From the NCBI GenBank assembly GCA_011037195.1, contig JAAEAF010014562.1, forward strand, positions 40,422-104,421: a DNA stretch of 64,000 bases, read 5' to 3'. The stretch is from Triatoma infestans. Its lineage: Eukaryota; Arthropoda; Insecta; Hemiptera; Reduviidae. Below are positions 1 through 43,690 of the stretch, piece by piece. Below the pieces are notes generated by a model that was given only the letters and a program-made list of their open reading frames with translations, was not told the origin of the DNA and did no database searches. Position numbers and translations under genes: made by a program. Numbering within the stretch: position 1 is the first letter of the stretch; each line of letters starts with the position of its first letter.

Positions 1-600
1 GGATTGGTTACAAAAAAAAAATGGTTTCTCAAACTAAGATTTGATTGGATTGAGTGAAATTAAGGTTTAAATTTATTTGATAAAAAACAAGTTTAAACTA
101 ATTGATCTAGGGTTTAAAAATTAAATTAAGAAAAATCGTATGATTTACACTAATTAAAGTGAATTGCTTATGACTGTTTTGAAATGAGATTAATATCAAT
201 TGAATTGAGAGAATAAGTTTTTAATTACATTGAATTAGTTTAAGCTGCTTTTCATTTAAAATGAAGATTTAATTGAATTAAGAGAATAAGTATAATTTAA
301 CCAAAAACTGGTTGATCAATGCATTTAATAAATTGAGAGAAAAGGTTTAATTATTATTTTTGAGTAAGTCTGATTTGATTGTTTTATACTGCTTGAATGG
401 AAGAGGTTCAATTGGCTTAAGAGAATAATTTTAATTGGTTTAAAAACGAGCCAAATTTGGCTGAATTAGTTTAAACTACTTGAAATGATGGTTTAATTGA
501 ATTTAGAGAAATGATTTAATTAGTTGGATAAAATAAAAATGATTGAATAAGTTGAAACAAGTTTGGAAATTAGCCTATATATTAAGCCAGAGTATACGAT
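1..600. repeat. Degenerate AT-rich tandem repeat
   Basis: A sequence of the type AATTGAGAGAATAAG followed by TTTAATT recurs at about 204, 275, 331, 413 and 498, spaced about 60-85 bases apart. The copies have diverged strongly. No coding signal is seen. Confidence 0.5.
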
Positions 601-10840: not shown

Positions 10841-10857
10841 CGGCGGCGTTCACCCAA

Positions 10858-10896
10858 CATCCTGAAGTTGAGCCAACACCTGAAACCAGTCGATGA
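10858..10896 (+). ncRNA. Decayed hammerhead-like core (family A)
   Basis: CATC, then CTGAAGT, a short segment, then GAAACCAGTCGATGACCAC. It preserves the family A stem I arms (CATC/GATG), the GAAAC block and the GTC cleavage-site position. The CUGANGA box ends in T and stem II no longer pairs. Predicted inactive. Confidence 0.45.
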
Positions 10897-10899
10897 CCA

Positions 10900-12460
10900 C
10901 AAAATAGTAGCAGGCAATCCAAGATGTGTGGGAGGAAACCTAAACCACCATGTCTCGTAACATGAATAAAATACATCAGGGTTCATCCGGAGACCATTGT
11001 ATAATCCCACGTCTTATAAACGCATGCTGTATCATCCAGGATGAATTATTGTGAAGCTGTTCCCCCCCCAACCTTTCTTCTCTCTGTAGCTTCATTTTAT
11101 CTAAGAGTAATCTCGATGATAAAAAACACTTCAAAGCATTCCTAGGAAACATAATGGGAGCCCAATGTAGCGGCCTAAGAACATCTAAGATCACGATCTA
11201 GAATCCTGCGACTTTTCTTTTCTTATTTTTTAAGTAAACTTCTATTTTTTTCTTTATAAAGTATATATATATAAAAAAAATGACTTAGCAAGACAATTTC
11301 AAAAATCAAGAAATTACATCCCTTCCATACGGTTATTGACAAACTTCATACCTGCACTTTTATTTGTATACAAATTTCAACATCTATATATTCTTGGAAT
11401 AAAAGATTTTAAGTGCATTTAAAATTTGCTTGTATATAATACCACAAAAGTCACACACAAGGTTTACAGGCAAAAAAGTTTCAGGAATGCATTTCTGGGA
11501 GGGGGGCAACAAAAAGTCAATAATGGGATCTTCTTAACTATTAATATATGTCGATTTTATTTTATTTTATTTTTTTTTTTGTGATTAACCAAAGATTTGA
11601 TTGGTGATTTGATAACTCGAAATTCATAAGGTTCGACCAGAAGTAAAAAAAAAAAAAAAATTCTTTGCCAACGTTTCGAATAAATTTTCGAATCTTTTTC
11701 AATACCAACCAAAAAATATGTTTATGTTACAAATCTTTAAAACATATGGGGGATTCACAAAACTGAAATATACCAGAAAAAAATTATATGGTATCTGTCA
11801 TTATGACAAATACGTTTTTTCAACACCCTCCAGAACTCTCTAAACCCGCCCTCCCCCTTCCTCGCTATGTGAAAACGTTCGTTCGCTTTTTACCAAATAG
11901 TGCTTCCCCCCCCAAAAAACGTATTCTACGTTCTAATCTAGAAACTCGGAGCCTCCAAAAGAAGGTTCAGAGCACTAAGACCTCAGCTGGGCCCATTGTG
12001 CACCTATTCTACGTTAATATACTAAGGAACTTACAAAAATGTATTCTGAGTGTGTAGTGTGCGAAATATAATGTAACTGTTGTGTATAGCTGTCTTGTTT
12101 ATTTAAAAATGTAACATTCAAGATTTTTTTTGATCTTTTAGAAAAAAAAGTTCGATTCCCGTCCGTGAGAGCAAAGTCGGTCGGTTGACCCAGCATCGTG
12201 ATAAAAAGTGGGGAAGCTATAGTTAGCTAGTAGTACCCTAGGTAGCGAAGGCTGGAACTTAAACGGCGTGGGAACTGCGGCGTCCTTACCACACCACCCC
12301 TATTCAAATCGCCGTCTAGCAAGCCTAGGGACCCTTCATGGGCAATTGTCCCTTCAGGGGTTTAGAAAGAAAAGCTGGGAATTGGGAAAAAATCAAGGTT
12401 TGCACTAGTATGGTTTGGCAATGTCCAGAGAATTTGTGAGTAAGTAATTGAATATACAAA
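10900..12460. other. No gene recognised
   Basis: AT-rich intergenic sequence. Open frames at 10810-11194 and 11788-12196 show no recognisable domain. Confidence 0.5.
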
Positions 12461-12544
12461 TCTGATAGTTGTAGTGTGGTTGGTTCTGCAGAGCTGGAAA
12501 GTATCAGAAGATATTTTCGGTGAATGCCTGCTACTTTTTGTGAT

Positions 12545-12583
12545 CATCGACCCGGTTTCGGGCGTTCGCCCATCATCAGGATG
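12545..12583 (-). ncRNA. Hammerhead-ribozyme-like core, family A
   Basis: On the minus strand: CATC (stem I, 3' strand), CTGATGA (catalytic box), T, GGGC-GAAC-GCCC (stem II with a 4-base loop), GAAAC, CGG, GTC (cleavage expected after C), GATG (stem I, 5' strand). Every conserved core position of the type I hammerhead is present. The very short stem III resembles minimal hammerheads reported from Penelope-like elements. Activity is inferred, not shown. Confidence 0.72.
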
Positions 12584-12680
12584 TTTGTGTCAAAAGAGTG
12601 TGATAATATAGACTTGCACAGAGCAATTTATATTCTGTGCAAGTCTATATTTATCATACTGTTTTAACAAAAAAATAATT

Positions 12681-12716
12681 CTGATGATGGGCGAACGCTC
12701 GAAACCCGGTTGATGA
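12681..12716 (+). ncRNA. Hammerhead-ribozyme-like core, family A
   Basis: CTGATGA, T, GGGC-GAAC-GCTC (stem II with one G-U pair), GAAAC, CCG, GTT, GATGATC. The core is intact, with U at the cleavage position, which hammerheads tolerate. Upstream AATT replaces CATC, so stem I pairing is weaker than in the opposite arm. Confidence 0.62.
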
Positions 12717-13049
12717 TCACAAAAGAAGTAGGCTGTCACGGAAAATAAATATCTCTCGACAAATTTAATAAGATTTTATTCGTATCATTTCTGTAGTTGA
12801 TTTTTTTTGTATTTTTATGCACATCATTTATGATTCGTTTCGTTTAATTTTCTGTTGTCAAAATCTGTATGTTAGTAAAGTCAAATTTGTTTTTTTTATT
12901 TTCTGACGTGATGTTTTGTTAAGGTTATTAAAAAATATAATAAATTTATCGAAACATTGGTAAGAATTCATTTATAGACCACGAATGTTAAACTATTTTT
13001 AAATTGCATAAAGCTGCATAGAAAGAAAGAGAAGCTGTATTTTTTTTTT

Positions 13050-13252
13050 AAATTTAAGGCGCGTCAACATCTATGGTCATTGGCGCTCGGAGCCCCTTCT
13101 CAATGCACTGCCCCGCCTCCGGACAGTGAGCTGTAGAAGCTCCTAAAAAGAAAAAAAAAATCTAAGGTAGTACAGCACAGCTGGACTCGAACCTGGGTCC
13201 TCCGTGTCATGAGTCCAGTATGCTAACCACTTAGCAAATCCCTTTCCCTAAA
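13050..13252 (-). repeat. tRNA-derived SINE, copy 2
   Basis: Same family as 8482-8712. The head contains GGTTAGCATACTGGACTCAT and a B-box-like GGTTCGAGTCC. The middle of the body is shortened: the block around the repeated ACTGTCC motif is missing. Confidence 0.82.
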
Positions 13253-14339: not shown

Positions 14340-15077
14340 TTAACATTCACTATAGGGCTGATGGTGCAACGTAGTCCGGGAGGTGTAATCTGGTTGTAAA
14401 TGACAGACAACCGTTTCACCATCCAATACGGCAACCGTACCCTGATGCGGTGCAACAACCGTACCATGATGGTGTCCAACAGCAGCCGCAGCTTGCTCCT
14501 TCAACCTTTGCCTATATGCTACATCAAAAGCTGCATGAAAATTACGATCAGTGGCTACAGACGCAGGTGTATATGGTATTAAAGGCCTATGATCACCATA
14601 ACTTCTAGAAGATTGACGCGACATATCTGATACACGTCTACCATCTTCATCCGACATATCGGATACTTGTAATACTTCTGTACATGCGGCCCTTTCACGT
14701 TCACGTTCAATTTCTTCGTATACTGGATCATCGTCTGGTAGTCCTGTAACAACGTTGGCCGCTACACCGCCCATAACACTTCCTGCACCATTAACGCCAC
14801 CACCAACAACACCACCGGCTGCTCGCCTTTCACGTATCTCTGTATATGTATGATTCCATGGTGATGTAGCCCTTAGACTGCCATTAGCTCTCTTTGCGCG
14901 AGCACCAAGGGTAACAGCTCCATGGCTTCCACTGCTCCCGTAACCTCCATAGCCGCTTTTATCTTTATGCCTCAGCAGACTGTTACTAGTTAGTACGGTT
15001 GTCTGCCCTTTTGGAGATTCTTCTTGTTCAGACCCACCATGTCCTGAGTCCCGACTAAACGATTTAAAAGAAATGTT
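14340..15077 (-). CDS. Cirl: Latrophilin/CIRL last exon: distal tail and stop
   Basis: An open frame runs to a TAA stop at 14342-14340. It contains DSGHGGSEQEESP, a Gly/Ser/Ala-rich section, SPWNHTYTEIRERR, DDDPVYEEIEREREREA-type acidic/basic repeats and a C-terminus ending HQPYSEC. Tyrosine motifs such as YTEI and YEEI suggest phosphotyrosine-type docking sites; that is inference. The start is set by a good acceptor (T-rich tract plus CAG at 15080-15078). That gives phase 0, which does not join the phase-1 donor at 30972. A missing exon between 15.1 and 31.0 kb, or the AG inside GACTCAG about 40 bases downstream, could fix this. No polyadenylation signal stands out in the next few hundred bases. 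Confidence 0.82.
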   Translation of the reverse strand, partial: NISFKSFSRDSGHGGSEQEESPKGQTTVLTSNSLLRHKDKSGYGGYGSSGSHGAVTLGARAKRANGSLRATSPWNHTYTEIRERRAAGGVVGGGVNGAGSVMGGVAANVVTGLPDDDPVYEEIERERERAACTEVLQVSDMSDEDGRRVSDMSRQSSRSYGDHRPLIPYTPASVATDRNFHAAFDVAYRQRLKEQAAAAVGHHHGTVVAPHQGTVAVLDGETVVCHLQPDYTSRTTLHHQPYSEC

Positions 15078-15384
15078 CTGTACAGAAAAAACAGAAAACA
15101 TGAAAAAAATAACACAAAACATGTAATTGAATTTTGGCTAGGTAAGAAATAAATTTCAAAAAGAGCATTCTCACGATTGGTACAAAAAAGAATTCTTCGT
15201 ACGAAATTCCCGAAAAACATTGCAAATGAAAAAAAAAGGCTTTATAAAAATATACACTAGATTATACTTGAAAAATTGCAATCGCGAGAATGCACCATCA
15301 ACTGTCATAAACACAAGAAAGTAGTGTACATCTTCCAGAATGAAACTGCATAAGTGGCCTAAGAATGCTAGAAATAAGGACTTT

Positions 15385-17305
15385 ACATAAGCTAACTGGG
15401 GAACAACACTAGACAGGCAACTCTGTCCCACTTGCTATTATAACCTGTTCTATTTTAGGTTACTACCTTACAGTTCCAAGAAGTACAGAACGAGCAACAA
15501 GAGCTAACTGGGGAATAACACTAAAATAGGCAACTTTGTCCTAGTTGCAACTGTAAACTGCACTGTGTTAGTTTACTACCTTACAGTTAGATCGTACAAA
15601 AAGTATGGAACAAGCAATAAAAACTAAACTAGGGAAGGACACTGACACAGACAACATTGTCCTAGTTGCAACTGTAACCTGCTTTGTTTTAATTTACTAG
15701 CTTACACTAAGATCGAACAAGAAGTCTGGGACAGGCAACAAGAGCTAACTGAGGACAACACTGTGACTGGCAACGTTGACTCCTAGTTGCAACTGTAACC
15801 AGCATTGTTTTAGTTTACTACCACCTTACAGTAAGATCGAACAAGAACTCTGCGGCAGGCAATTAGAGCTAACTGGGGGATAACACTGAGACAGGCAATT
15901 TTGTCCTAGTTGCAACAGTAACCTGCATTGTTTTAGTTTACTACCTTACAGTAAGAACGAACAAGACGTCTGGAACCGGCAAGAAGAGCTCACTGGGGAA
16001 CAACACCGGCACAGACAACATTGTCCTACTTGCAACTGTAACCGACACTATTTTAGGTTCCTACCTTACAGTTGCAAGAAGTCTAGAACAGATAACAAGA
16101 GCTCGCCGGGAAAAAACACTGAGATAGGCAACCTTGTCCTAGTTGCATCTGTACCGATTTGTTTTAGTTTACTACCTTACAGATGCAAGACGTGTGCAAC
16201 AGGCAACAAGAGCTCACTGGGGAATAACACTGACACAGACAACTTTGTCCTAGTTATAACTGTAACCTGCGTTGTTTTAATTTACTAGCTTACAGTAAGA
16301 TCGAACAAGAAATCTGGGACAGGCAACAAGTGCTAAATGGGGAACAACACTGAGACAGGCAACGTTGACTCCTAGTTGCAACTGTAACCTGCTCTGTTTT
16401 AGGTTACTACCTTACAGTAAGATCGAACAAGAAGTCCGGTACAGGCATCGAGATCTAACTGCGGAATAACACTGAGACTGACAACATTGTCCTACTTGCA
16501 ACTGTAACTGTATTGCAACTGTATTTTATGTTACTACCTTACAAGAAGTCTGAAACAGGTAATAAGAGCTAACTGGGGAATAATACTGAGGCAGACAACG
16601 TTGACTCCTAGTTGCAACTGTAACCAGCATTGTTTTAGGTTACTACCACCTTACAGTAAGATCGAACAAGAACTCTGCGACAGGCAATTAGAGCTAACTG
16701 GGGGATAACACTGAGACAGGCAATTTCGTCCTAGTAGCAACAGTAACCTGCATTGTTTTAGTTTACTACCTTACAGTAAGATCGAACAAGAAGTCTCGGG
16801 CAGGCAATAAGAACTAAACTGAGGAATAACACTGACACAGACAACTTTGTCCTATTGCATCTGTACCTGCTCTCCGTTAGTTTACTACCTTACAGTAAGA
16901 TCGAAAACGAAGTCTGGGACAGGCAACAAAAACTGACTGGGGAATAACACTGAGATAGGCAACTTTGTCCCAGTTGCAACTGTTACCTGCATTGTTTTTG
17001 TTTACTACCTTACAGTTAGATCTTACAAGAAGTCTGGAACAGGCATCAAGAGCTAACTGGGGAATAACACTGAGACAGACAACTTTGTCCTAGTTGCAAA
17101 CTGTAACCTGCACTATTTTAGGTTACTACCTTACAGTTGCAAGAAGTCTGGAACAGGTAACAAGAGCTCACTGGGGAATAACACTGAGACAGGCAACTTT
17201 GTCGTGCTTGCAACTGTAACTTGCTCTGTGTTAGTTTACTACATTACAGTTAGGTCGTACAAGAAGTTTGGAACAGGAAACAAGAGCTAATGTTATTCCC
17301 ACATT
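15385..17305. repeat. Tandem array, about 17 units of ~118 bp
   Basis: A unit with landmarks GAGCTAACTGGGGAATAACA, CTGAGACAGGCAAC, TTTGTCCTAGTTGCAACTGT, AACCTGC, TTTTAGTTTACTACCTTACA, GTAAGATCG, AACAAGAAGTCTGG recurs about 17 times. Unit starts fall near 15390, 15502, 15622, 15742, 15868, 15988, 16101, 16211, 16332, 16453, 16568, 16692, 16811, 16932, 17051, 17166 and 17285. Spacing is 110-126 bp. The copies are diverged and head to tail. Units contain a partial inverted repeat (GTTGCAACTGTAA versus TTACAGTTGCAA). The array sits inside the CIRL gene, just upstream of its last recognised exon. Confidence 0.92.
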
Positions 17306-17819
17306 GAGACAGACATGATTTTTTACAACCTGTCCTATAATCTTACACTCAAAACTCAATATATTTCATGAAATTCAAATTTTTAACAAAAGTAATTTGA
17401 AATAAAATTAAAAAATATGTTAATTCTAACATAATTGGTTTTACATAATGAATAAAATTTAATTCTATTCATTTTTTAGGGGGAGTTTTTATAATTATTA
17501 GGTGGCAGATATTAGAGGATGTGGCATTTACTTCTATTTTATTGAAGTATTTCGAGTTAAACTTCCAAAAATGTACAAGTTGCCGAGTTTCTACAAACTA
17601 CAAGATCTAAAAAATTTTTTTGTGCAACTGCCCTTGAAAGGTCGAATGCTGTCAATTGTCGCGTTTTAGTGAAGGCCGTGTGGGTTAATACGGAACAGCT
17701 TTCATTGCCTGTGTAAGTTTCTGACGTTTGTTACCAGGTTCCCTGGTAAAATAGGAAGATTAGCTTCCTATTTTTCCTCATAATACTGGCTTCACAACAA
17801 TGTTATTGCCACATAGGGG

Positions 17820-18760
17820 GATCTATTTATTTTTTTTGTCCGTGGGGAGGGACCAAACCTTGCGCTATCCAACGCCCCACTGGGCCCCCATATGGCTACC
17901 CCAAGAAAAACAACAACAAATCGGGTCTAGAACAAATATCCAGACCCGGGTCTAATCCATTTAAGATTCACTGCAATCCGAACAAATCGGCCAATAACCT
18001 TAAGAGGAAATAGCCTAAGCTCTTCCACAGACATTCTGCTCCGATCAAAGGTACTGAACCTAATTTCCTCGCAACCTAGGCAATCTGTCATAAGATTGAT
18101 GTGTGTTTCCTTCTCTATCTCACAGACTCTACGAAATGGATCCAGCATGAGCACCATTACTTAGAGGTGTCTCCTTAAACCACAATGTCGAAGTAAGGGA
18201 TCCAACCAGAGCCTGAGAGAGCTCCCTGAATGACACAGCAACGTCTCACTAGTAGCCCTGTCCGGACCCCCGATGAGCATTTTGGACTGCGGACAACCAA
18301 CTGAGCTCATCCATAAAGATGAATGCTGTGAAGTTGTCCATGACTGGAACCTGACAGGCATGTGCCAGAAGACACGCCAACAGCAGGCTCGGGGGCCAAT
18401 GAAGGGAAGAGAGGCGCCTAATTTGGCACACCTAACCCATTCCCAAAAATGCCCATGTGACCCGGTACTCAGACTAGAAGCATATTCTGCAGAGAAGATA
18501 GCTCTTCCAGTCTTTTAGAACATTCTATCCCCAACCTGCAAGTGAAGACACATGAACTCAGCGCCTTCAGCGCAGCTTGGCTATCCGAGCAGATACAAAC
18601 ACCTTTTAAGTTAGTGTTACGTACCCTCTCATCCAAGATACAATAAAGAATTGCATAAAACTCGGTCTAGAAGACTGTGGTCCATTCACCAAGAGATACT
18701 GTCAATAGCGGGATCTAACTCAGATTACTCTCACGAATGGCAAGAGCGCTTTAGGCAATT
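17820..18760 (-). pseudogene. Non-LTR 3' end (RNase H and zinc region)
   Basis: The minus strand reads CAKLGASLPFIGP near 18.4 kb, a GHCGLRRHL-type block near 18.17 kb, then MVLMLDPFRRVCEIEKETHI and LMTDCLGCEEIRF near 18.1 kb. This is the C-x2-C-like...H...C zinc motif and LxGxCxLxxHL core of RNase H-bearing non-LTR elements. A 3' UTR with GTGGGGAGGGACCAA follows. Stops and frame changes break it. The same 3' end recurs at 20320-20850, 21880-22290, 46990-47560 and 60940-61240. Confidence 0.72.
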
Positions 18761-19330
18761 CCAACATTTCCGATGAGCCTAAATATGCATGGTGGAACCC
18801 GAACTATTTTAAAGGTAAGCTTAAAGATTATTCTTCCAGAACATCCTATAACGTTCTTAGTAAAAATGCAGTACCCCCCCCCCCCGGTACATACCACATT
18901 TTGGAGAAGAAGATATCCACCACAGAATATCCCTCCAGATCTTGAAGTTTCCCGAACGGAAGTTTAACATAAAATACTTGAAAAAAAGACAGAGTTGCTC
19001 AAGAGGGAAAAAATGCCGGGGTCATCTGCAAGTAGCCATAAAAAAAAAGTTAATGTCAGAGGAAGACCCCCCTAGTTTAATCTTTTCGATAGGAACTAGA
19101 TAGCTCCTGGCTATATTTACGAGTATATAGATGGCCATATAAATGGCTACTTAGGCCGTCAAAAACCTCTTATAATATCATTTTTCACTTAATCTATAGT
19201 ATTGCGATCTTGCCAAATTTTTTGGAAATTCAGTTTACACAGATAATACGCATGTTTCGATGTCCCCTGAGTGCGAAAAAAGCGTTCTACCAAATGGTCG
19301 TTAAAAAAACCATTTTTTAATTAATATCCG
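18761..19330. other. No gene recognised
   Basis: Contains a C-homopolymer near 18875. No recognised domain. Confidence 0.5.
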
Positions 19331-19352
19331 CCGTAGCATGCATATTTATATT

Positions 19353-19392
19353 GTTCCTGCGCGGTTTCGGATTTTCATCCATTGTCAGAGCA
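19353..19392 (-). ncRNA. Hammerhead-like core, family D (defective box)
   Basis: Minus strand: CTGACAA (box, G to A at the sixth position), T, GGAT-GAAA-ATCC (stem II closed by a GAAA tetraloop), GAAAC, CGCGC. The box change should abolish catalysis. Confidence 0.5.
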
Positions 19393-19600
19393 CATTCACC
19401 AAGTTCGTGTAGAGACATCACTTCAACTTATTGTTTCTGTTACACTCACACTTGTTGGTTGTATATATGTGAGGAAGGTTATAAAGTTATGTTCAACATA
19501 ATCTTAGAACCTCCCCACATATATACAACCAATAAGTGTGAGTGTAACAGAAAAATTAAGTTGAAGTGTGAACTCTCTACTTGAACTTGGTGAATTTGCT

Positions 19601-19636
19601 CTGACGATGGATGAAAATTCGACACCGGTCAGGAAC
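19601..19636 (+). ncRNA. Hammerhead-like core, family D (defective GAAA)
   Basis: CTGACGA (intact box), T, GGAT-GAAA-ATTC (stem II), GACAC in place of GAAAC, CGGTCAGGAAC. One substitution in the conserved GAAA block predicts an inactive core. Confidence 0.52.
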
Positions 19637-19929
19637 AAAATAAATATGCATGCTACGACGGATAAAATACCAGATGTTATCCAGCATTGCAGACCCATCC
19701 ACATATTCTTTATTAATGTTCATTAAGTGTAGTTATTACATTTCCTCCCATGAAAAAATGTGCCATGAATCCGAAACAAAATGGTAGTCGGATGGAGATA
19801 AATCTGGGACTATAGGGTGGGTGTAAAAAGAAGTTCAATGCCATCAAGTGACGTGGGGAATTGTGTGGCCTAGCATTTTCTTGCTGGAGCGAAACTTATC
19901 TGCGATTAATTAAACGCTGGGGCTATTTT

Positions 19930-20310
19930 CGAATACATTAGATTGGCCCGGGGGGGTCTCCAACCCAGACCCCGCAGCCATTTTGGCAACCCCTTAGTAG
20001 ACGAAACCTCCCCTCTTCATGAGGTCAAAGGGCTTCCCCCCCACTAGTCCTTCTTGCATTACGATATCCTCCGGTCTCAACGTGCCAAAGATCCTCGTAC
20101 CACAATCTGCCGATTGCAACGCACTCAAACAGAAAGGTGAGAGGCCGTCTCCCTCTACTAGGGAGGGTAGTAATATCCGTCTATATCCCTCTATCTAGGG
20201 GGGGTTGATGTTAGACTATCCTAACATAGTCTTCACAAGGGCTCCGAGTTTATTAACCCCACCTTGTGCAGATGATTTTCGAGTAAATTCTATCTAGTTT
20301 TGTTAAAAGT
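19930..20310. other. No gene recognised; GC-richer patch
   Basis: A patch with several C and G runs (for example at 19949-19956 and 20036-20043) unlike the AT-rich surroundings. No domain is recognised. Confidence 0.45.
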
Positions 20311-20319
20311 AAAGATCGA

Positions 20320-20850
20320 AATTCATTGGCGGTCCATCGGGAACTATTATTATTACTTATCTGTGGGGAGGGACCAACCCTACGCTATCCAAAGCCAGAC
20401 CTGGGTTTAATCTATCTAAGATTCACCGCAGTCCGAACAAATCGGACAATAGCCTTAAGGGGAAATAGCCTAAGCTCTTCCACATACATCCTGCTCCAAC
20501 CAAAGGTCCTGAACCTAATCTTCACACAACCCAGACAATCTGTCATAAGATGGATGGGTGTTTCCTCCTCTGTCTCACAGAATCTACAAAATGGATCCAG
20601 CATGAGCTTCATTACGTAGAGATGTCTCCTTAAACCACAATGTCCAGTAAGGGATCCAACCAGATGCCTGAGAGAGCTCCGTGAAAAACACAGCAACGTC
20701 TCACTAATAGCCCTCTTCGGACCTCCGATGAGCATTTTAGACTGCCGACAACCAACTGAACTCATCCATAAGGATGAATGCTGTGAAGCTGTCCATGATT
20801 GGAAGTCTGACAGACCTAATTCATGAAAGTCCATCGGGAACTCCTTCATA
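20320..20850 (-). pseudogene. Non-LTR 3' end, second copy
   Basis: A long minus-strand frame (20849-20412) contains GSLTGHCGLRRHLYVMKLML, then DPFCRFCETEEETPIHLMTD and CLGCVKIRFRTFG. This is a well-preserved C-x2-C...H...C zinc region. Upstream, ASQHSSLWMSSVG is a frame-shifted RNase H segment. It is the cleanest member of the family that includes 17820-18760 and 46990-47560. Confidence 0.78.
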
Positions 20851-21239
20851 GTTCCAGAAAACGCACAATTTTTTTCTCAAATTCCCCCTTGCACTAACTG
20901 GAAATGCCGCTTGTCCACAACTGACCAACTATTGAACCATGTGTCTCAGGAAATCGCCAGTAAATCCACTTCTCATCAAATGCCACTTATTCTTTTGTAA
21001 AAGTACATGTCAGATAGATATTTTTTTTAAAGAGAAGTTGGCAAGTATCCATTTTCCTGTTGAGGTGTAAAGTTCATGCGTCACTAACCTACATCTCCTT
21101 TTAACCTTTCCTATAACATGGAGATGGCGGCTGATGCAAGTCTTTAGACACTGCAGTAAGGCTACGAGTAATTAAGGTTGAATTAGGGACTCGAAAGCTT
21201 CTTGTAAAGCCTCAACTACACATGATAATCTAGGACATC

Positions 21240-21515
21240 TTGTGGTTGTTTCGCAGAGCTGGAAAGCATCAGATATTTTCCATGATACCCTGCTACATTT
21301 TTAGTCATCGACCGGTTTCGGGCATTCGCCCACCATCAGGATGCTTTTTGTCAAACAGTGTGATAACATAGATTTGCACAGAGCATGAGTGTATAAACTA
21401 AATGTGATCTGTGCAAATCTATATTATCACACTGTTTGACAAAAAGCCCGAAACCGGTCGATGACCACAAAAATGAGCAGGCTATCACGGAAAATATCTC
21501 TGAAGGACATACATC
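21240..21515. repeat. Fold-back unit, family A, right arm deleted
   Basis: The left arm GCAGAGCTGGAAAGCATCAG through the hammerhead block and GTCAAACAGTGTGATAACAT faces ATATTATCACACTGTTTGAC through GACCACAAAAATGAGCAGGC and TATCACGGAAAATATCTC. The right arm lacks about 20 bases covering the catalytic box and half of stem II. Confidence 0.8.
21306..21343 (-). ncRNA. Hammerhead-like core, family A (box mutated)
   Basis: Minus strand: CATC, CTGATGG (last A of the box changed to G), T, GGGC-GAAT-GCCC, GAAAC, CG, GTC, GATG. All stems pair, but the box change predicts loss of activity. Confidence 0.6.
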
Positions 21516-21529
21516 TTCTCCTACGACTT

Positions 21530-21870
21530 CACATACGGTACGATGAGTAGCTTAGAAGCCTGTACACACTTTTTTTTCCCCATTAGTGACGTAAAACTAC
21601 CAATATATGGTGAGACAAGATCATGGCTTTCTAAAAAAAGTCAGCTCCCAATTGAAGTGACTATTTGAAGGGGACATAATACGTATAGAAACACTCTACA
21701 CAGTCTAAGATTAATATAATATCGTGTTTTGTAAACATCGAGAGTTATGTGGATGGGTTTTTTAAAGTCCATGGAACTTCTTTATTAGAAAAACGGCCAT
21801 TTTATTTTTTTATACACCCTATTATGTCATACTCCGCTCATATTGAACAATACATGAAATACCTGACAGG
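21530..21870. other. No gene recognised
   Basis: AT-rich unique sequence with no recognised domain. Confidence 0.5.
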
Positions 21871-21879
21871 CAACGATTT

Positions 21880-22290
21880 CATTATTATTATTATTCAAGA
21901 AAAGAAAAAGCGAAACCCTATGCTATACAAAACCTCCCTGGGCCCATATAGCTACCCCAAAAGAATAACAACTACCGGGTTTTGAACAAAAATCCAGGCC
22001 CGGGTTTTACCCATCTAAGTTTTACCACAGTCCGAACAAAGCGGACCAGAACCTTAAAAGGACATAGCTTAAGATCTTCTACCGATATCCTATTTCGGCT
22101 AAAGATCCTAAACCTTATCACCTCAAAGCCCAAACAATCCGTCATAAGATGTATGGGTGTTTCCTTCCCCGTCTCACAGACTCTACAAAAGGGGTCAGGA
22201 TGAGCCCCATTGTATGGAGATGGTCTCCTTAAGCTACAATGCCCAGTGAGGAAGCCAACCAGATATCTGAGAGAGGTCCGTGAAACAACA
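21880..22290 (-). pseudogene. Non-LTR 3' end, third copy
   Basis: Shares the same minus-strand landmarks as 20320-20850, including the CTGTGAGAC...GGAAGGAAACACCC zone, ATGACGGATTGTTTGGGC, and the 3' UTR block near 21900 with AAACCCTATGCTATACAAAA. Truncated and full of stops. Confidence 0.65.
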
Positions 22291-22379
22291 ATTTCATAAA
22301 AACTAAATAAATGATAATTAATAATAATCTATGAATTAATTACAAAACGGCAATATACCAAAATTATCTTCAATATTAA

Positions 22380-22608
22380 GGGAAGGGAATAGCTAAGTGG
22401 TTAGCGTACTGGACTGTCACGCGGAGGATCTTGGTTCGAGTCCAGCTGTGCTGTCCTTAGATTTTTTTTCTTCCTAGGAGCCTCTTACAGCTCATTGTCC
22501 GGTGATGGACAGTGATGTCTGTAACGAAAGAACACTGTCCGGAGGCCGGCAGTGCACTGAGAAGGCTCCAGGCGCCAATGACCATAGATGTTGACGCGCC
22601 TTAAAAAA
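22380..22608 (+). repeat. tRNA-derived SINE, copy 3
   Basis: Complete copy on the plus strand: GGAATAGCTAAGTGGTTAGC, then TTGGTTCGAGTCCAGCTGTG, a body with TCCGGTGATGGACAG and GGAGGCCGGCAGTGCACTGA, and a tail with ATATATATAT. The anticodon-loop position differs (TGTCA) from copies 1 and 5. Confidence 0.86.
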
Positions 22609-22639
22609 AATATATATATATTATTTTTTTAATTATTTT

Positions 22640-23515
22640 TTTCAAGTCTCTACCGATGTGGCTACATTTCTTCAAAGAATCAAGCAACACTATGAAAAAC
22701 AATGTTCATTATCGTCCGCCATTTTGTATGTGTGAAAAAAATATCTCAAAAACAAAAAAGATCGCACGGAGCTCAAACTTGATATTCCGTTTCCAATTTT
22801 TCACTTTTTTTTTAAAAAAAACATCACATATTAACTAGACACATAAAGGCCATCACTTTTATTTGAAGATTTGTGCAGGAAACTCGATTATTTGGGGTTT
22901 TCGGGGTTAACAGTAGGGTAAGATTGTCCCTCTGTGCTCAAATGGTGTAATGGATGCTGGAGCACTACGAGATTAGCACGGCTCCTTGACAAAATAATGA
23001 CTGGTAATCCAAAGGAATGATGGGCTCAATTGTATTGGTCTGCGCGGCGCCGAATGATTCAATTACTACGGCGGGCGTTGGATTAAAAAAATTAAAATAA
23101 AACTTTTTTCTCATATCAATTAATACAATTTAATTGAAAAATTGTCTTTAAAATTGCTTGCTTGCTGACAAACATTAGTTCAGCTGGTGATAAAAAAACG
23201 GTGGTCGGGATTATACATATATATATACCTGAGTGTATACTGTGGGTAACCTCTGTCTCAATACCATGTAGCGTCAGTTGAAGCATAACTAAACAGGCCC
23301 TCCAAAAAACCCTCTAACATAAATGGGAGGGGGGGGGGGATATTTTAAATTTGCAGAAAATCGTTGCAGCTGTTTTAGAGTTTCCAAAAAAATCAAAACT
23401 AAAAAAACCTATTAAATAACGCCGCATTTCTAACTTATTTTTTTCAAATTTGGAATTCAATCAATGCTTCTAATGTATATTATTAATACGATATAGGTGG
23501 TGGTAAAACCATACA
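22640..23515. other. No gene recognised
   Basis: AT-rich sequence with a G-homopolymer near 23330. No recognised domain. Confidence 0.5.
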
Positions 23516-23519
23516 TTTT

Positions 23520-24060
23520 ACTGAAGTGGCACTTTTGGGGATTCTGGGCAACGAAAGGGCGGACGCCCTAGCGAGGGAGGACTCGAAGCAATACCTTTAC
23601 AGGCTGCAAACCCTTAATGCAGGTTGTCCAGGAGCCTGATTCAAGCTTCTATCAAAGAGTGAATAGAAGAACAGCGTCGGCAATGGTGGGAGAGAACACA
23701 CCAAGACAGAGGCAGGATAAACTCTTTATTAAGTGATATTTGCCTAAATTTACCAGGGACCTCCTGAGCCATAGCCGAAAGGACATAAGGCTAATAGTGG
23801 GTCTAATAACCGGGCAACTTGCAGATTAACGCGTTATGCCAATTCTGCAGGGTCGAACCGGTATACATTCTTAGTGAGTGTGCCAGGCCTATATCTAACT
23901 ATATCTTGCCATATACATAAATGCCCTAACGAGGTAGGTGTTCGGAATAAGTTGACACTCGCCTGGGTCCCGGGACATGTGGGGTTCCTTGGCAGCGAAA
24001 GGGCGGACACCCATAGAGGGAGAGCTCGAAGGATACATTTATAGGCCCTGAGCTTTTCTA
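23520..24060 (+). pseudogene. Non-LTR RNase H fragments (two short pieces)
   Basis: Piece one (about 23530-23920) encodes the FLGNERADALAREDS block, the EEQRRQWWERT-like segment and the zinc zone, with stops. Piece two (about 23935-24060) restarts at NKLTLAWVPGHVGFLGSERA. Both align with the longer copy that follows, giving a head-to-tail cluster of the same 3' end. Confidence 0.7.
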
Positions 24061-25115
24061 TGGGTTACCCAGGAGGCCTATGGGCCGCCTCCCATCACCT
24101 CTAGGCATGATCGTAATAACCAGAGGTTGATCGAGGAAATCAAGGCGGACGATCTTCTGGGGATGCCAACGGATAGGATGGTTCCTAAGTATTTCTTCGA
24201 AAGGAACTTCCATATTGTCATACCGAGCAGAGGCGAATGGGCTGTGACCCACCCCTGTTCGGTAACTCGATCTGGTATACAGATGGATCCAAAACTCCGA
24301 CTGGGGTCGGAGCTGGGGGTCAACGGGGGCAGGCCTAAAGTTAAAATTAAGGCCAGCCTAGGGAAGTACGCCACGGTCTTTCAGGCTGAAGTCGTGGCGT
24401 TGCAACTCTGCGCTAGGGAGATTATAAGGCAAAGGATAGTGGGTAGAAGAGTGGCCATATACTCCGACAGTCAGGCAGCCCTGAAGGCACTTTCCTCACA
24501 CCAAGTGGTCTCAAGACTGGTGTGGGACTGCCTACTTGCCCTCACCGAGGTGGGTACTCGGAACAAACTGACACTCGCCTGGGTGCCGGGACATGCGGGG
24601 TTCCTGGGCAATGAGAGGGCGGATGCCCTAGCGAGGGAGGGTTCGCAGGATACCTTTATAGGCCCCGAACCCTTCTGCGGCTTGTCCAGGAGCCTCATTC
24701 AAACTTCTATCAGGGGTTGGGTAGAAGAACAGCGTCTGCGTTGGTGGGAGGGAACACCAGGACAGAGGCAGGCAAAGCTCTTTATCAAAAGACATTTGCC
24801 TAAATTTACCAGAGACCTACTGAGCCAGACCCGAAGGGATATAAGGTTAATTGTGGGTCTACTAACAGGGCATTGTAGGCTGAATAGACACATGCACCAC
24901 CTACAACTTGCGGATAGTGCGGTATGCCGATTCTGCAAGGTAGAGGAGGAGACCCCGGCGCACATCCTTTGTGAGTGCGCCGGCCTGGCGAGGATTAGGT
25001 TTCTTCAATTGGGGACGGGCAATCCCGAAGCTGAAAGCTTCATGACGGAGCCGCTCTCAGCTTTGCTAGGACTGATTAGGAGGGCAAGGCTGGGGGCTGT
25101 TCTGTAACGTAAGGG
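24060..25115 (+). pseudogene. Non-LTR RNase H and zinc domain, best copy
   Basis: An open frame (24127-25107) gives most of an RNase H domain: FQAEVVAL (second acidic residue), IYSDSQAALKAL (third) and WVPGHAGFLGNERADALARE (fourth). Then come HLPKFTRDLL, IVGLLTGHCRLNRHMHHL, and zinc motif CRFCKVEEETPAHILCECAG. The first catalytic Asp (WYTDGS, near 24275) is in another frame. The G run at 24315-24319 carries one extra base, which explains the shift. The domain order fits an RNase H-bearing non-LTR clade of the I/LOA kind; clade assignment is inferred. Reverse transcriptase is absent, so this is a 5'-truncated dead copy, common for target-primed insertion. Confidence 0.82.
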
Positions 25116-25179
25116 GATCCACAATAGACCTCGATTTGTAGGTCGCAGTGGAATGAGGCTCCCCCCCCCCGTTTCTATT

Positions 25180-25625
25180 CTATTCTACCCAGGAGGCCTG
25201 ATAGAAGCTTCTATCAAGGATTGGATAGGTGACCAGCGTCTGCGATGGTGGGAAAAAACAACGAGGCGGAGGCAGGCTAAATTTTTTATTAAAAGACATT
25301 TACCTAAATTTACCAGGGACCTACTGAGTCATAGACGAAGGGATATAAGGCTAATAGTGGGTCTATTAACAGGGCATTGTAGGCTCATGCACCAATTACT
25401 ACTTGCTGATAACGAGTATGCTGATTCTGCAAGGCCAACGTGGAAACCCCAGAAGCATACCATCCTTTGTGAGTGTGCTGGCCTGATGAGGACAAAGTTT
25501 CTTCAACTGGGTTCAAGTAATCCGGAAGCCACAAACTTCATGACGGGAGCCACTTTCAACTTTGCTAGGCTTGATTTAAGAAGGCAAGCTGAAGAATGTG
25601 CAGTGGAATGAGGCCTCATCCTCCT
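25180..25625 (+). pseudogene. Non-LTR 3' end, truncated copy
   Basis: The frame from 25153 reads ASIKDWIGDQRLRWWEKTTR, HLPKFTRDLLSHRRRDIRLI and VGLLTGHCRL. A frameshift breaks the zinc motif, and ILCECAGLMRTKFLQLG follows. It starts in the middle of the same domain as 24060-25115 and ends with the same 3' tail (GTGGAATGAGGC). Confidence 0.75.
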
Positions 25626-25669
25626 CTTCTGTCAACCTAAAGTAAATCTAGGTATTTATGTGTGTAGGT

Positions 25670-25900
25670 TGTATATAAAGTTTAAAAAAAAAAAAATCGT
25701 TAGAACCGTTTCCGAGAAAATCACGAAAAAAATCAAGTCGCACTTCCGTTTGTTGGATTTTGACCGAAACTTTCGTGTCTAATGCAATGGTACTATCTAA
25801 ACAGAATATCAAGTTTAAACGTCCTGTAAGTTTTCGTTTTTGAGACATTTTGTTCCCACACGCATAAACACTTTTTCTATACTCAGGGGGGGAGGGCACC
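25670..25900 (+). repeat. Modular repeat M, partial
   Basis: Contains GCACTTCCG, an ATATCAAGTTTAAACGTCC block and GTTTTCGTTTTTGAGACATT, which match the last module of the repeat at 40893-41960. No coding content. Confidence 0.6.
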
Positions 25901-26830
25901 TCTCAAAATATGTATTGTAAATTTGACATGATTGCAAATAAATTTACAAAAAATAATTCTTAAAATAAAAAAAATTAAAACAAAAAATTGTATTCAGGAA
26001 CAGTAAATAAAAATAATGAAGCATGCAAAAGTTTTGCATTGGGTTATTAAGCTAGGAAAACATAATTTTAATTGAATAAACAAATTGGCCAATATTCTGT
26101 ACAGGGTGTTGCATTTGGTGCACAAATTGTAACAAAAATAATTATGTATTTATTTTTTTATTTATAATTAATGATGAATAGGCAAAATAATGGACTAAAG
26201 CTCGACACAGTCAACCTTAAAAGTAGGAAACATGGAGATAGAGCTATGAATGAAGCATAACCTGGCCATCAAAACCTTTCACATTAAAACTACATAAATA
26301 AGTTTATAAAAAAATCGTTTTAGCCGTTTACGAGAAAAACGCCAGAAATGTCTAGGATCATTACTTTCTACACGTCAAAGGAGGGTAACTCCATAGTGTC
26401 CCATCTTGAAAACATATTCGAATTTGAATTGATTGGCGGCCTGATTATCGGTTTAGAAACACATTTTACCCTAATTCTGATATAATTTCTTGCCATGGTT
26501 GAAAATTTGTATCACACCTTCTAATTGTCTTGGAATGACATGGTAAAGTCCAAGCTGATGTGTCAGGAGGATGTGGTAAGATCACAGGTTATGCTCAGGC
26601 GTTGCGTGACCATGGCTGGGACCAGTGACGATTTCTAGGCCTTTAAGTAGGGGGACTTCTTCCCTCTAAAAAATGGTACCACGGAGTTCTGACTCCACGT
26701 TCACGATTTTTTAGATTTAATGTTGATTTTATGAAGTATCAGGAGTATGTATGATAATTTTATCTGTTCTGTGGGAGAAAGTTGACTGGTTTGCCTTTGG
26801 AAATAGTTCCGCCCTCTTCCATTCCATCAC
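25901..26830. other. No gene recognised
   Basis: AT-rich. A small remnant resembling repeat M (AAAAATCGTTTTAGCCGTTT) lies near 26310. Confidence 0.5.
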
Positions 26831-26861
26831 AATAACATGCCTGGAAGATGTTGGCTGGGCA

Positions 26862-27080: not shown

Positions 27081-27099
27081 TAGCTATTATATTTTGCTA

Positions 27100-27690: not shown

Positions 27691-27849
27691 AACTTAAATT
27701 TTCAAAAAAAAAAACAACAAAATAACATAACCAATTATATAAAGTAAGAAAATGTCGATATTTGGATAACATATTTTGACAAAAAATCTTCCCACTAAAT
27801 CATTGGGAGCTATTTTTGAGAAAATCACGAAAAACTGAAAAAAAATCTT

Positions 27850-28840: not shown

Positions 28841-28844
28841 TTTA

Positions 28845-35200: not shown

Positions 35201-35333
35201 AATCTTATTGGAAATCCCTTGGAAAGATGTTGTGGTTGGATCCACAGAGCTGGGAAAAGTATCAGAGATATAATGAGATGACTATACGGCGACGGCCAGA
35301 GAAGTTTTTAAAGAAAAAGAATTCTTTGTTGCT

Positions 35334-35376
35334 GCTCTACGTTTCGGGTTACCGTTGGTGCCCTTCTTCAGGAGCT
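35334..35376 (-). ncRNA. Hammerhead-like core, family B (intact)
   Basis: Minus strand: GAGCTC, CTGAAGA (box), A, GGGCACC-AACG-GTAACCC (stem II, one bulge), GAAAC, GTA (cleavage expected after A), GAGC (pairs with GCTC). Stem III would be AC-GU with no loop. Such cores are known to work as dimers, because ACGU is self-complementary. Confidence 0.66.
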
Positions 35377-35423
35377 CTGTAAAATTTATAAATTTATACA
35401 GTAATAAAATAAATTTTACAGAA

Positions 35424-35464
35424 CTCCTGAGCAAGAAGGGCACCAATGGTACCCGAAACGTAGA
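35424..35464 (+). ncRNA. Hammerhead-like core, family B (box interrupted)
   Basis: CTGAGCAAGA replaces CTGAAGA (about three extra bases), followed by GGGCACC-AAT-GGTACCC, GAAAC, GTA. Stem II and the GAAAC block are good. The interrupted box predicts inactivity. Confidence 0.55.
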
Positions 35465-35569
35465 CCAACAAAGAATTCTTTTTCTTTAAAAACTTCTCTG
35501 GTCGTCGCCGTACAAACAACTCATTATAATTTTATGGCCTGACGATTTGAATACCATTTAACAGTGATA

Positions 35570-35690
35570 TATTTTCCGTGTTAACCTGCTTCGTTTTGTG
35601 GTCGTCAACCGGTTTTTCAAAGGGCGTTCACCCATCATCAGGATGTTTTGTCAAAACAAGTGTGATAACACAGATTTGCAAAGCAGGAAA
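35570..35690 (-). repeat. Family A arm with decayed hammerhead core
   Basis: TTTTCCGTGTTAACCTGCTT, TTTTGTGGTCGTCAACCGG, then GGGCGTTCACCCATCATCAG, GATGTTTTGTCAAAACAAGT. On the minus strand at 35645-35602 the CTGATGA box and stem II are present. The region after stem II has extra T and A bases around the GAAA block. No matching right arm is seen. Confidence 0.6.
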
Positions 35691-39479: not shown

Positions 39480-39600
39480 AATTGGTGCTTTGGGGTTGGT
39501 GCCGCAAAGCTGGAAAGCATCAAACATTTTCCGTGATAGCCTGCTTTGACCTTTGGTCGGGGAACAGGATGTTTGTGGAAGGAGCCTTAGGCTATGACTC
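39480..39600 (-). repeat. Family A outer arm, core deleted
   Basis: GGTTGGTGCCGCAAAGCTGG, AAAGCATCAAACATTTTCCG, TGATAGCCTGCTTTGACCTT then AACAGGATG. It is the family A left arm with the hammerhead block missing. Confidence 0.55.
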
Positions 39601-41999: not shown

Positions 42000-43260
42000 T
42001 ACGATACAAAATCGGACAAAAAAAATAGCAGAAAGCCTGAAACCTGGTATTTTATTTCGAATCTAGCCAGAGTACACGTTAATAAGATTTTCAATAAAAA
42101 TCGGCCAAAAGTACTACTTTTACTGAATAGATTTTTTTCAGTTTTCTGCGTTTTTCTTCAAAATAGCTTCGAAACTGGGTATATCAACTAATATAATCTA
42201 AAAAAAAATAATAATAATAAAAATAAAAAGCTAGATTTTCAATGTATAGCATTTAATCCCGGGGAAATTCCCCGGAAAAGCGGGGTACTGAGGGAATGTG
42301 TATGTGACGTCAGGCTTTCCTCTAAAGTGCCATTTCCTTATATAATACGATTACTATTGTCTATTTAATACTTATACGCTCCTGAGCCGTACCCCGAAGC
42401 AGTAATGTAACGACCAACGGAAGTATGAAAATAGAAGGTATAAAAATATACAGAATCAGAAGTAATAATGTTAGTTGTAATGATAAGGTAAGAGAAGAGA
42501 CAATTATTGACAGAAAGATATATAAAACTGAATTCACTTCGAAGATGATGTAAGCGGAAGCAAGATCGTTGGTACTGGGCCGCGGTGAAGTGACGTAAAG
42601 GGGTTGGTGTAAATGAAGCGTGTGAAAGCTGTTTAGGTGTGAATGTTGTATGTGCGAGTGCAGTAAGATGCCAATGGATGACGCTGAAGAAGGTCTTGAA
42701 GCCGGAAAGGCGATGAAATTAGATGAGTGTTCTTCTTGAACGAGAAAAAGGCGTAAATCAAGTTAATTCTCAGTAAGAGAAATATGCTTACAGCGGATAA
42801 CGCTGGGAGAGTAAGTACACTCGCGAAGGCGAAACAAAATAAGCGAAAAAAAACACTTGATGCACGTAAAAAGTGAACGGCGAATAAACACAGAGCTGTG
42901 TTCTTCACAACAGTAAGAAGAGCAATGAATAATAAGGAACACTAAAGTGAGGGAAGTATGTGAAATTGCGCCGGCGGCAAAAACAACAAAAGAAAAGAGC
43001 GCGATCAGTTAGTTGAACAGGCGGGAAATATAGGTGAAAAGACCGCGTTAAGTTACAGTGAAAAGGCGGGAAACAGAGTTAATCCCTGAAAGAGACCGCA
43101 ACCGAACAATATTAATAAACATTTAATGTATAGTCAAAATTCCTGAGTTCGAAGACAAATCGTTTTACCATCGAAAAATTTCAACTTGAAATTCAGTGTG
43201 AAATTCGGTAATTGCATGATTTGAAGTAGTTACTCCTGAAGTGTGAAACTAAGTCTCTGT
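42000..43260. other. No gene recognised
   Basis: Less AT-rich between 42300 and 43100, with no domain in any frame. A further TAATTAACC-type fragment is not assignable. Confidence 0.5.
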
Positions 43261-43261
43261 A

Positions 43262-43375
43262 CGAGTCTGTGTTGGCACACTGTCTGAAAAGCGCATTCCT
43301 GAAGATGGGCGAACGCCCGAAACCGGTCGATGACCACAAAATGAAGCAGGCTTCCACGGAAAATGTCTCTGAAGT
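43262..43375 (+). repeat. Family A right arm with hammerhead-like core
   Basis: GTTGGCACACTGTCTGAAAA, GCGCATTCCTGAAGATGGGC, then GAACGCCCGAAACCGGTCGA, TGACCACAAAATGAAGCAGG, CTTCCACGGAAAATGTCTCT. The pairing left arm appears about 240 bp away at 43565 but in an outward arrangement. Confidence 0.72.
43299..43332 (+). ncRNA. Hammerhead-like core, family A (CUGAAGA variant)
   Basis: CTGAAGA (N is A), T, GGGC-GAAC-GCCC, GAAAC, CG, GTC, GATGACC. The core is intact. The upstream flank ATTC pairs only partly with GATG, so stem I is weak. Confidence 0.64.
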
Positions 43376-43559: not shown

Positions 43560-43690
43560 TCTTGTTGTGGTGGTTGGTTCCGCACAGCTGGAAAGCATCA
43601 GAGACATTTTCCGTGATAGTCTGCTTCTTTTTGTGGTCATCGCCGGTTTTGGGGCGTTCGCCCATTATCAGGATGTTATTATTACTAGTT
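43560..43690 (-). repeat. Family A left arm with decayed core
   Basis: TTGTTGTGGTGGTTGGTTCC, GCACAGCTGGAAAGCATCAG, AGACATTTTCCGTGATAGTC, TGCTTCTTTTTGTGGTCATC. The minus strand at 43675-43638 gives CATC, CTGATAA (box mutated), T, GGGC-GAAC-GCCC, CAAAAC. Two core positions are altered. Confidence 0.62.

What the first reader, a model, noticed from the sequence alone, without database searches (positions are those of the whole stretch)
12500..12757. Fold-back units carrying opposed hammerhead-ribozyme-like cores
Seen directly: a palindrome with arms of about 115 bp, each holding a CUGAUGA box, a 4-bp stem II, GAAAC, and a GUC/GUU cleavage triplet followed by GAUG that pairs with CAUC upstream of the box. 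Known: minimal type I hammerheads occur in Penelope-like elements, usually as direct repeats. The opposed arrangement, in a non-coding fold-back of about 260 bp, is unusual. It may be a self-processing non-autonomous element: transcription of either strand gives one active core plus an antisense copy able to pair with it. No Penelope reverse transcriptase or GIY-YIG frame is in the window.
Basis: partly seen in the sequence, partly recalled or inferred. Interest (0 to 1): 0.86.

Follow-up and report, generated by a model that had tools for sequence, protein, structure and literature searches.

The report
Paired inverted Penelope retrotransposon ends
The palindrome is most likely two copies of the starting end of a Penelope-like jumping element, joined back to back and each carrying that element's usual small hammerhead ribozyme, so it is an expected remnant of this element class and probably not a new self-cutting element.

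Summary
A fold-back (12468-12758) carries two opposed hammerhead cores with all conserved residues. It is one of 7 places (9 arms) of a repeat family in this 64-kb insect-like window; two other families nearby share only the core. The layout fits published Penelope-like element (PLE) pseudo-LTRs. An ATG sits at stem II, the predicted cut lies 24 nt into that frame (26 in Anolis PAc), and arm ends fall in two classes, +66..68 and +98 or beyond, matching the PLE 30-40 bp 'tail'. All three complete fold-backs have the tail at one end only and candidate target duplications (individually weak). Between the two complete family-1 copies, 5 sites group arms by copy and 0 by side, which suggests the arms were made together, not by two chance insertions or as a fixed two-armed unit. 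Published rotifer PLEs show adjacent inverted pseudo-LTRs with one tail. The unit is predicted to fold into a long hairpin that buries both cores, so a self-processing element is unlikely. Against: no PLE protein was linked, no Rfam hammerhead model hits, the frame is broken in this copy, families 2 and 3 lack the ATG, and the genome search did not complete. New member of a known kind.

The parts
12456..12467 (.). candidate left target-site duplication ACAAATCTGATA
   Evidence: Matches 12759-12770 at 10 of 12; p about 0.027 against 2000 random window positions
12468..12503 (-). PLE-like 'tail', 36 bp, present only at this end; on the minus strand its outer end is the AC-rich ACCAACCACACTACAAC
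   Evidence: Arm reaches +102 (where my consensus stops), while the other arm stops at +66
12468..12625 (-). left arm, a pseudo-LTR-like unit read on the minus strand, -51 to +102 relative to the ATG
   Evidence: 142/153 identical to a consensus typed by eye from these copies
12545..12583 (-). minimal type I hammerhead core: CAUC-CUGAUGA-U-GGGC-GAAC-GCCC-GAAA-CCGGGUC/GAUG, predicted cut between 12549 and 12548
12571..12573 (-). ATG overlapping the core (A9-U-G), start of a frame MGERPKP... that is broken soon after in this arm
   Evidence: position compared with PAc
12626..12633 (.). 8-nt loop ATTTATAT at the head-to-head junction
12634..12756 (+). right arm, pseudo-LTR-like unit, -48 to +66 relative to the ATG, no tail
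   Evidence: 102/113 identical to the same consensus
12677..12715 (+). second hammerhead core: AAUU-CUGAUGA-U-GGGC-GAAC-GCUC-GAAA-CCCGGUU/GAUG, predicted cut after 12711; weak stem I
12759..12770 (.). candidate right target-site duplication ACAAATTTAATA
21239..21503 (.). second complete fold-back of family 1 (tail left, none right), flanked by AGGACAT at 21232-21238 and 21504-21510; both cores damaged
   Evidence: (p about 0.07)
43255..43372 (+). single family-1 arm, ends +68, no tail
43564..43680 (-). single family-1 arm with tail (to +102, where the consensus stops), truncated at -15
35228..35683 (-). family-1 arm with tail (to +100), split by the family-2 fold-back
   Evidence: pieces 35228-35271 and 35566-35683
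35272..35558 (.). family-2 fold-back with its own hammerhead core (box at 35371, minus), tail at the right end only (35526-35558, 33 bp; up to 36 if the duplication is shorter), candidate duplication TATCAGAGATAT/TAACAGTGATAT
   Evidence: (p about 0.027)
10856..10919 (+). decayed family-1 fragment, alignment ends at +51
39490..39557 (-). family-1 fragment with tail (to +98), core region missing

Best explanation
The fold-back is a solo pair of pseudo-LTRs (5' ends) of a Penelope-like retrotransposon joined head to head. Each arm holds about 50 nt of 5' UTR, the minimal hammerhead that overlaps the ORF start, and the first ~22 codons; one arm also has the PLE tail. Most likely mechanism: the PLE protein, bound near the start of its RNA, cut both strands of the target and primed reverse transcription on each, once at the inner start site (+68) and once at the outer AC-rich site (+~100). 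Both cDNAs ran toward the RNA 5' end, their ends joined, and the staggered cut was filled, leaving a 7-12 bp duplication. The hammerhead is carried along as part of the PLE RNA and is probably silent in this palindrome, because each core can pair with its antisense copy. Shown: the anatomy, two end classes, candidate duplications, arms grouping by copy. Inferred: PLE parentage, priming on both strands, silence of the cores. The confidence given is for the identity (PLE pseudo-LTR pair); for the both-strand priming step alone I give about 0.35, and the self-priming rival is a variant inside the same identity.
For: 3' ends relative to the ATG fall in two classes: +66..68 in 3 arms (c1R, c2R, c3R) and +98..102 in 5 (c1L, c2L, c3L, c4, c6); the ninth, decayed arm (c5) stops at +51. 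My consensus ends at +102, so the outer class means '+98 or beyond'; for c1 and c2 the candidate duplications put the outer boundary there independently. This matches the 30-40 bp PLE tail lying between two internal RT start sites, the outer one in an AC-rich stem loop (PMC11167929, main text). ATG at stem II and cut 24 nt into the frame compare with 26 bp in PAc. All 3 complete fold-backs (12468, 21239, 35272) have a tail at one end only. Candidate duplications: p about 0.027, 0.07, 0.027. Between c1 and c2, 5 sites pair arms by copy, 0 by side, 0 crosswise; in family 2 the arms of one copy are 92.7% alike against 87-90% to two other copies. Adjacent inverted pLTRs, a 31-bp tail on one, pLTRs holding 12 aa of ORF (22 with tail) and 8-10 bp duplications where present are described in rotifer Penelope (PMC3846280). 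A review states that all available PLE sequences carry conserved, usually minimal hammerheads (PMC6155905, passages). Stem I differs in sequence between one core of each of the three families (CAUC/GAUG, GCUC/GAGC, GUUC/GAAU with one G-U) and still pairs.
Against: No PLE protein was linked to these arms: two protein searches scored nothing. The frame MGERPKPVDD... comes from a consensus typed by eye; it stays open in c3R and c3L but is broken in c1L, c1R, c2L and c4L. The extra nucleotide is A in families 2 and 3, so they have no ATG there, and it also occurs in viral hammerheads, so the ATG coincidence is not specific to PLEs. Duplications are weak, and a fourth test, on family-2 copy 46218-46455, found none (p about 0.17; its left arm is truncated). 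Three of the five by-copy sites lie within 4 columns and could be one alignment shift. Plain identity does not separate c1 arms (85.5%) from c1R-c2R (86.4%). Later gene conversion between arms would give the same site pattern. The c2 loop matches c3R upstream no better than chance (266 of 1000 shuffles as good). No Rfam hammerhead hit even at E<=10, where one of two control hammerheads was weakly found.
Confidence: 0.82

Rival explanations
1. PLE pseudo-LTR pair made by self-priming: one cDNA snapped back at its end and copied itself, giving the palindrome. (Same identity as the best explanation, other mechanism.)
For: Self-priming was proposed for rotifer Penelope from palindromes at inverted junctions, on an antisense template (PMC3846280 Discussion); loops here are short (8 nt at 12500, about 20 nt at 21239); arms group by copy.
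Against: A snapped-back copy should carry the tail at both ends (my inference); 3 of 3 complete fold-backs have it at one end only.
Confidence: 0.25
2. A self-processing non-autonomous fold-back element: the palindrome moves as a unit and uses its opposed ribozymes, somewhat as retrozymes do.
For: Both cores at 12500 keep the conserved residues; repeat family present at 7 places.
Against: 0 sites group arms by side against 5 by copy; whole-unit folding energies of -134.2 and -158.7 kcal/mol with a predicted long hairpin for the plus strand; animal retrozymes are described as small tandem repeats giving circular RNA (PMC7229834, passages); 5 of 8 arms reaching the core region no longer match the full core pattern; in PAc the hammerhead needed the protein to cleave in vitro and was not needed for insertion (PMC11167929).
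Confidence: 0.07
3. A MITE or fold-back DNA transposon whose inverted repeats resemble hammerheads by chance.
For: Inverted repeats flanked by short candidate duplications; no PLE protein linked.
Against: Three families in the window that share only the core region by BLAST all carry it; the core pattern is expected 0.03 times per window; a one-sided tail is not a usual MITE feature (recalled).
Confidence: 0.04
4. Two independent solo pseudo-LTR insertions that happen to lie head to head.
For: Single arms do occur (43255-43372, 43564-43680); the duplications around the pairs are individually weak.
Against: The same head-to-head arrangement occurs in three separate copies of two families, with candidate outer duplications and arms pairing by copy.
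Confidence: 0.04

Closest known systems
Penelope-like element pseudo-LTRs in inverted orientation, bdelloid rotifer Adineta vaga Pen2a/Pen2 (PMC3846280; passages, Discussion)
   Same: Adjacent inverted pLTRs, 31-bp optional tail on one of them, pLTR includes the ORF start, 8-10 bp target duplication in several (not all) copies, palindromes at inverted junctions
   Different: In the passages I saw, the pLTRs enclose a PLE ORF, a captured host gene or other captured sequence; here only the two ends remain. That paper's main text has no 'hammerhead'
Poseidon of Anolis carolinensis, PAc (PMC11167929; main text read)
   Same: Hammerhead spans the ORF start, ORF begins at stem II, RT starts at two sites inside the early ORF, outer one AC-rich, protein cuts and extends both target strands
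   Different: PAc sits in tandems; cut 26 bp into the ORF against 24 here; initiation 111-118 bp into the ORF against about 98-102 here
Animal non-LTR retrozymes (PMC7229834; passages)
   Same: Small non-coding repeats with type I hammerheads
   Different: Tandem repeats with canonical hammerheads, found as circular RNA; here inverted pairs with minimal cores

Membership tests
Penelope-like element (pseudo-LTR) | Minimal type I hammerhead in the terminal repeat | tested here: met
   Core with conserved residues in both arms; sequence only, cleavage not assayed, no Rfam hit
Penelope-like element (pseudo-LTR) | 30-40 bp optional tail at one end | tested here: met
   Of 9 arms, 3 end at +66..68, 5 at +98..102 (consensus capped at +102), 1 at +51; family-2 tail 33-36 bp
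Penelope-like element (pseudo-LTR) | Terminal repeat includes ORF start overlapping the hammerhead | tested here: inconclusive
   ATG in register and open frame in c3R and c3L, but broken in the 12500 copy and no homologue found; families 2 and 3 have no ATG there
Penelope-like element (pseudo-LTR) | RT plus GIY-YIG ORF between or beside terminal repeats | tested here: inconclusive
   None seen: Pfam on 10 of 23 ORFs of 110 aa or more gave two RVT_1, no GIY-YIG; crude six-frame motif scan gave no GIY-YIG pattern. Solo ends would lack it anyway
Penelope-like element (pseudo-LTR) | Target-site duplication (present in some copies) | tested here: inconclusive
   Four places tested: p about 0.027, 0.07, 0.027 and, for 46218-46455, 0.17
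Hammerhead ribozyme | CUGANGA, stem II, GAAA, UH cleavage site, stem I pairing | tested here: met
   the extra nucleotide before stem II is compatible with a complete three-stem hammerhead in 22 of 28 viral-contig matches
Hammerhead ribozyme | Rfam covariance model above gathering score | tested here: not met
   No hit at gathering score or E<=10. Controls of the same core type: 0 of 7 found at gathering score, 1 of 2 weakly at E<=10
Hammerhead ribozyme | Self-cleavage | not testable with these tools
   needs in vitro transcription
Retrozyme | Tandem repeats with canonical hammerheads | tested here: not met
   Inverted pairs with minimal stem III

The most novel reading that the evidence does not exclude
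These solo fold-backs are footprints of one integration act in which the PLE protein primes reverse transcription on both target strands from the same 5' RNA region, the two priming sites (+68 and +~100) being used one per strand. That would explain the one-sided tail and the origin of inverted pseudo-LTRs, and would replace the self-priming model.
Probability: 0.35. Interest if true: 0.55.

Novelty: new member of a known kind. Interest (0 to 1): 0.36.

Why it matters
PLE integration is poorly understood. If the one-sided tail holds across a whole genome, these short pairs are a cheap natural record of how a PLE starts and finishes an insertion, and they bear on whether inverted pseudo-LTRs come from priming on both strands or from self-priming. 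They also warn that opposed hammerheads in a palindrome need not be a working ribozyme element.

Tried and rejected
Rfam scans of the window: nothing at gathering score; at E<=10 around the fold-back mostly miRNA-hairpin models, none above its gathering score, and no hammerhead model. Exact-pattern searches of viral contigs for the family-1 core: 0 hits twice. Search for a PLE protein with this N-terminus: 26 candidates at E<=0.001 and 1 candidate at E<=10, none scored. A covariance model from viral-contig hammerheads was not built, because the alignment misplaced stem III. Junction homology between c2 and c3R: not better than chance. Family-2 junctions 35370-35435 and 46225-46325 align only with large gaps, so shared or independent junctions could not be decided. 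Plain within- versus between-copy identity was ambiguous for c1; the site-pattern test came after it and both are reported. Cervera and de la Pena 2014 and Lunse et al. 2017 are not held; I know them only as cited in other papers or by recall.

Full report
What is there. The window is insect-like DNA: a latrophilin C-terminal piece (14340-15119, minus) has 134 relatives at E<=0.001, of which 120 were listed; the best named one is from a leafhopper, Graphocephala atropunctata, 50%. Arms 12536-12582 and 12678-12724 are 91% complementary, and pairing extends over 12512-12747 at 81% identity. The pattern CTGATGAN{4,16}CGAAAC occurs twice in the window, once on each strand, against 0.03 expected. 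Minus core: CAUC-CUGAUGA-U-GGGC-GAAC-GCCC-GAAA-CCGGGUC/GAUG. Plus core: AAUU-CUGAUGA-U-GGGC-GAAC-GCUC-GAAA-CCCGGUU/GAUG, whose stem I is only 3 pairs with one G-U.

It is not alone. BLAST of the region against the window finds further copies. I count 9 arms at 7 places: 12468-12758 (two arms), 21239-21503 (two), 43255-43372, 43564-43680, 35228-35683 (split), 10856-10919 and 39490-39557. The split copy is interrupted by a second fold-back (35272-35558) that carries its own core, CUGAAGA-A-GGGCACC...CCC-GAAAC-GUAG. Other pieces of that family lie at 46218-46455 and 44687-44774. A third family at 46483-46608, folding back only through a 22-nt inverted match, with a fragment at 63915-63993, has CUGAAGA-A-GGGCA...UGUCC-GAAAC-GUC. 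Families 2 and 3 match each other only in a 22-nt stretch of the core, and family 1 matched neither. Stem I of one core per family differs in sequence yet pairs (CAUC/GAUG, GCUC/GAGC, GUUC/GAAU with one G-U). A descriptor scan found 5 cores against a mean of 0.3 in 100 Markov sequences; the descriptor was written after seeing the cores, and one hit (43299) chose a distant cleavage site.

Is the core a real hammerhead type? These cores have one nucleotide between A9 and stem II, which could be an objection. A pattern scan of IMG/VR contigs for exactly this arrangement returned 28 contigs. In 22 of 28 the flanks complete a three-stem hammerhead (stem III of 3 or more, stem I of 5 or more), against 15 of 1400 shuffled controls at a looser stem-I limit of 4. 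Several are near-identical: 15 distinct strings among the 23 that gave any fold. The pattern demanded the extra nucleotide, so it shows compatibility, not frequency. Rfam finds no hammerhead in the window at gathering score or at E<=10. As control, gathering scores missed 7 of 7 complete viral-contig hammerheads among eight loci scanned (its two hits there lie elsewhere). At E<=10 one of two was weakly found (L001, 12.4 bits, E 1.9) and one not (L004). The missing Rfam hit is therefore only weak evidence against.

Which element? Published facts fit closely. In the Anolis PLE PAc the ORF begins at stem II, the cut is 26 bp into the ORF, reverse transcription starts at two sites in the early ORF, the outer in an AC-rich stem loop 111-118 bp in, and the 30-40 bp tail is the stretch between them; the protein cleaves and extends both target strands (PMC11167929, main text read). 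Here an ATG lies at stem II and the predicted cut is 24 nt into its frame. The consensus frame, typed by eye, reads MGERPKPVDDHKKKQAITENISDAFQLCGTNHN; it is open in c3R and c3L and broken in c1L, c1R, c2L and c4L. Measured from the ATG, arms end at +66..68 (3 arms) or +98..102 (5 arms); one decayed arm stops at +51. The consensus stops at +102, so the outer class means +98 or beyond, inside the AC-rich ACCAACCACAAC; the candidate duplications of c1 and c2 put the boundary there too. In rotifer Penelope, adjacent inverted pLTRs, a 31-bp tail on one of them, pLTRs including 12 aa of ORF (22 with tail), short target duplications in some copies and palindromic junctions are described (PMC3846280, passages, Discussion). 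Reviews state that all available PLE sequences carry conserved, usually minimal hammerheads lacking helix III (PMC6155905, passages) and that these may cleave as dimers (PMC7761336, passages). The family-1 consensus has the self-complementary ACCGGU as stem III, which would fit a dimer. Against: families 2 and 3 have A, not U, before stem II and so no ATG there, and the same extra nucleotide serves viral hammerheads, so the ATG is not by itself a PLE mark.

How was the pair made? Flank comparison gives candidate duplications for the three complete fold-backs: ACAAATCTGATA/ACAAATTTAATA, AGGACAT/AGGACAT and TATCAGAGATAT/TAACAGTGATAT, p about 0.027, 0.07 and 0.027; a fourth test, on 46218-46455, gave none (p about 0.17). 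The third is nested in a family-1 copy, so its target sequence is known from relatives. Each of the three has the tail at one end only. Across the two complete family-1 fold-backs, 5 sites unite the arms of a copy, 0 unite left with left and right with right, 0 are crosswise; three of the five are within four columns and may be one event. Family 2 shows the same tendency (92.7% within, 87-90% between). Plain identity is ambiguous for the first copy. Together this argues that both arms came from one template at one insertion, or were homogenised later. A snapped-back single cDNA would be expected to carry the tail twice; two initiations, one at each RT start site and one per target strand, explain the asymmetry. 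This last step is inference.

Does the ribozyme work here? Not tested. Both 12500 cores keep the conserved residues, but only 3 of the 8 family-1 arms reaching the core region match the full core pattern. The whole 291-nt unit folds at -134.2 (minus) and -158.7 kcal/mol (plus); for the plus strand of 12500-12757 the structure was printed and is one long hairpin pairing each core with its antisense. In PAc the hammerhead did not cleave without the protein and was not needed for insertion.

Limits. The genome search did not complete (ten tries), so copy number, full-length elements and empty sites are unknown. No PLE protein was linked. Pfam was run on 10 of 23 ORFs of 110 aa or more, and a crude six-frame motif scan found no GIY-YIG pattern. 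I do not claim that a solo inverted pLTR pair with hammerheads is undescribed; my literature searches were made, in an open-licence library that lacks the two main PLE-hammerhead papers.

Noticed in passing
window 35272-35558, 46218-46455, 44687-44774: Second family with a hammerhead core; two of the three places fold back, and the first has a 33-36 bp tail at its right end only.
   Followed up: partly
window 46483-46608 and 63915-63993: Third family with core CUGAAGA-A-GGGCA...GAAACGUC and a 22-nt inverted match; it follows the A-rich end of a family-2 copy.
   Followed up: partly
L001-L028 (IMG/VR contigs): 22 of 28 viral-contig matches complete three-stem hammerheads with one nucleotide between A9 and stem II; Rfam gathering scores miss 7 of 7 complete ones among the eight loci scanned.
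   Followed up: partly
L011 332-397 minus; L025 3208-3270 plus: Separate type II hammerheads above the Rfam gathering score on the same contigs.
   Followed up: no
window 14340-32096 minus: Latrophilin-like adhesion GPCR gene pieces (7tm_2 at 31698-32096; C-terminal region at 14340-15122).
   Followed up: partly
window 37922-38257, 50559-51275, 24127-25104, 53251-54141: Remnants of other retroelements: two RVT_1 ORFs, an RNase H ORF and a DUF1759 ORF; DUF1759 suggests a Bel-Pao element (recalled).
   Followed up: no
window about 13170-13250: tRNA-like stretch (CTGGACTCGAACCTGGGTCC...), perhaps a tRNA-derived SINE; ARAGORN reports no tRNA gene.
   Followed up: no
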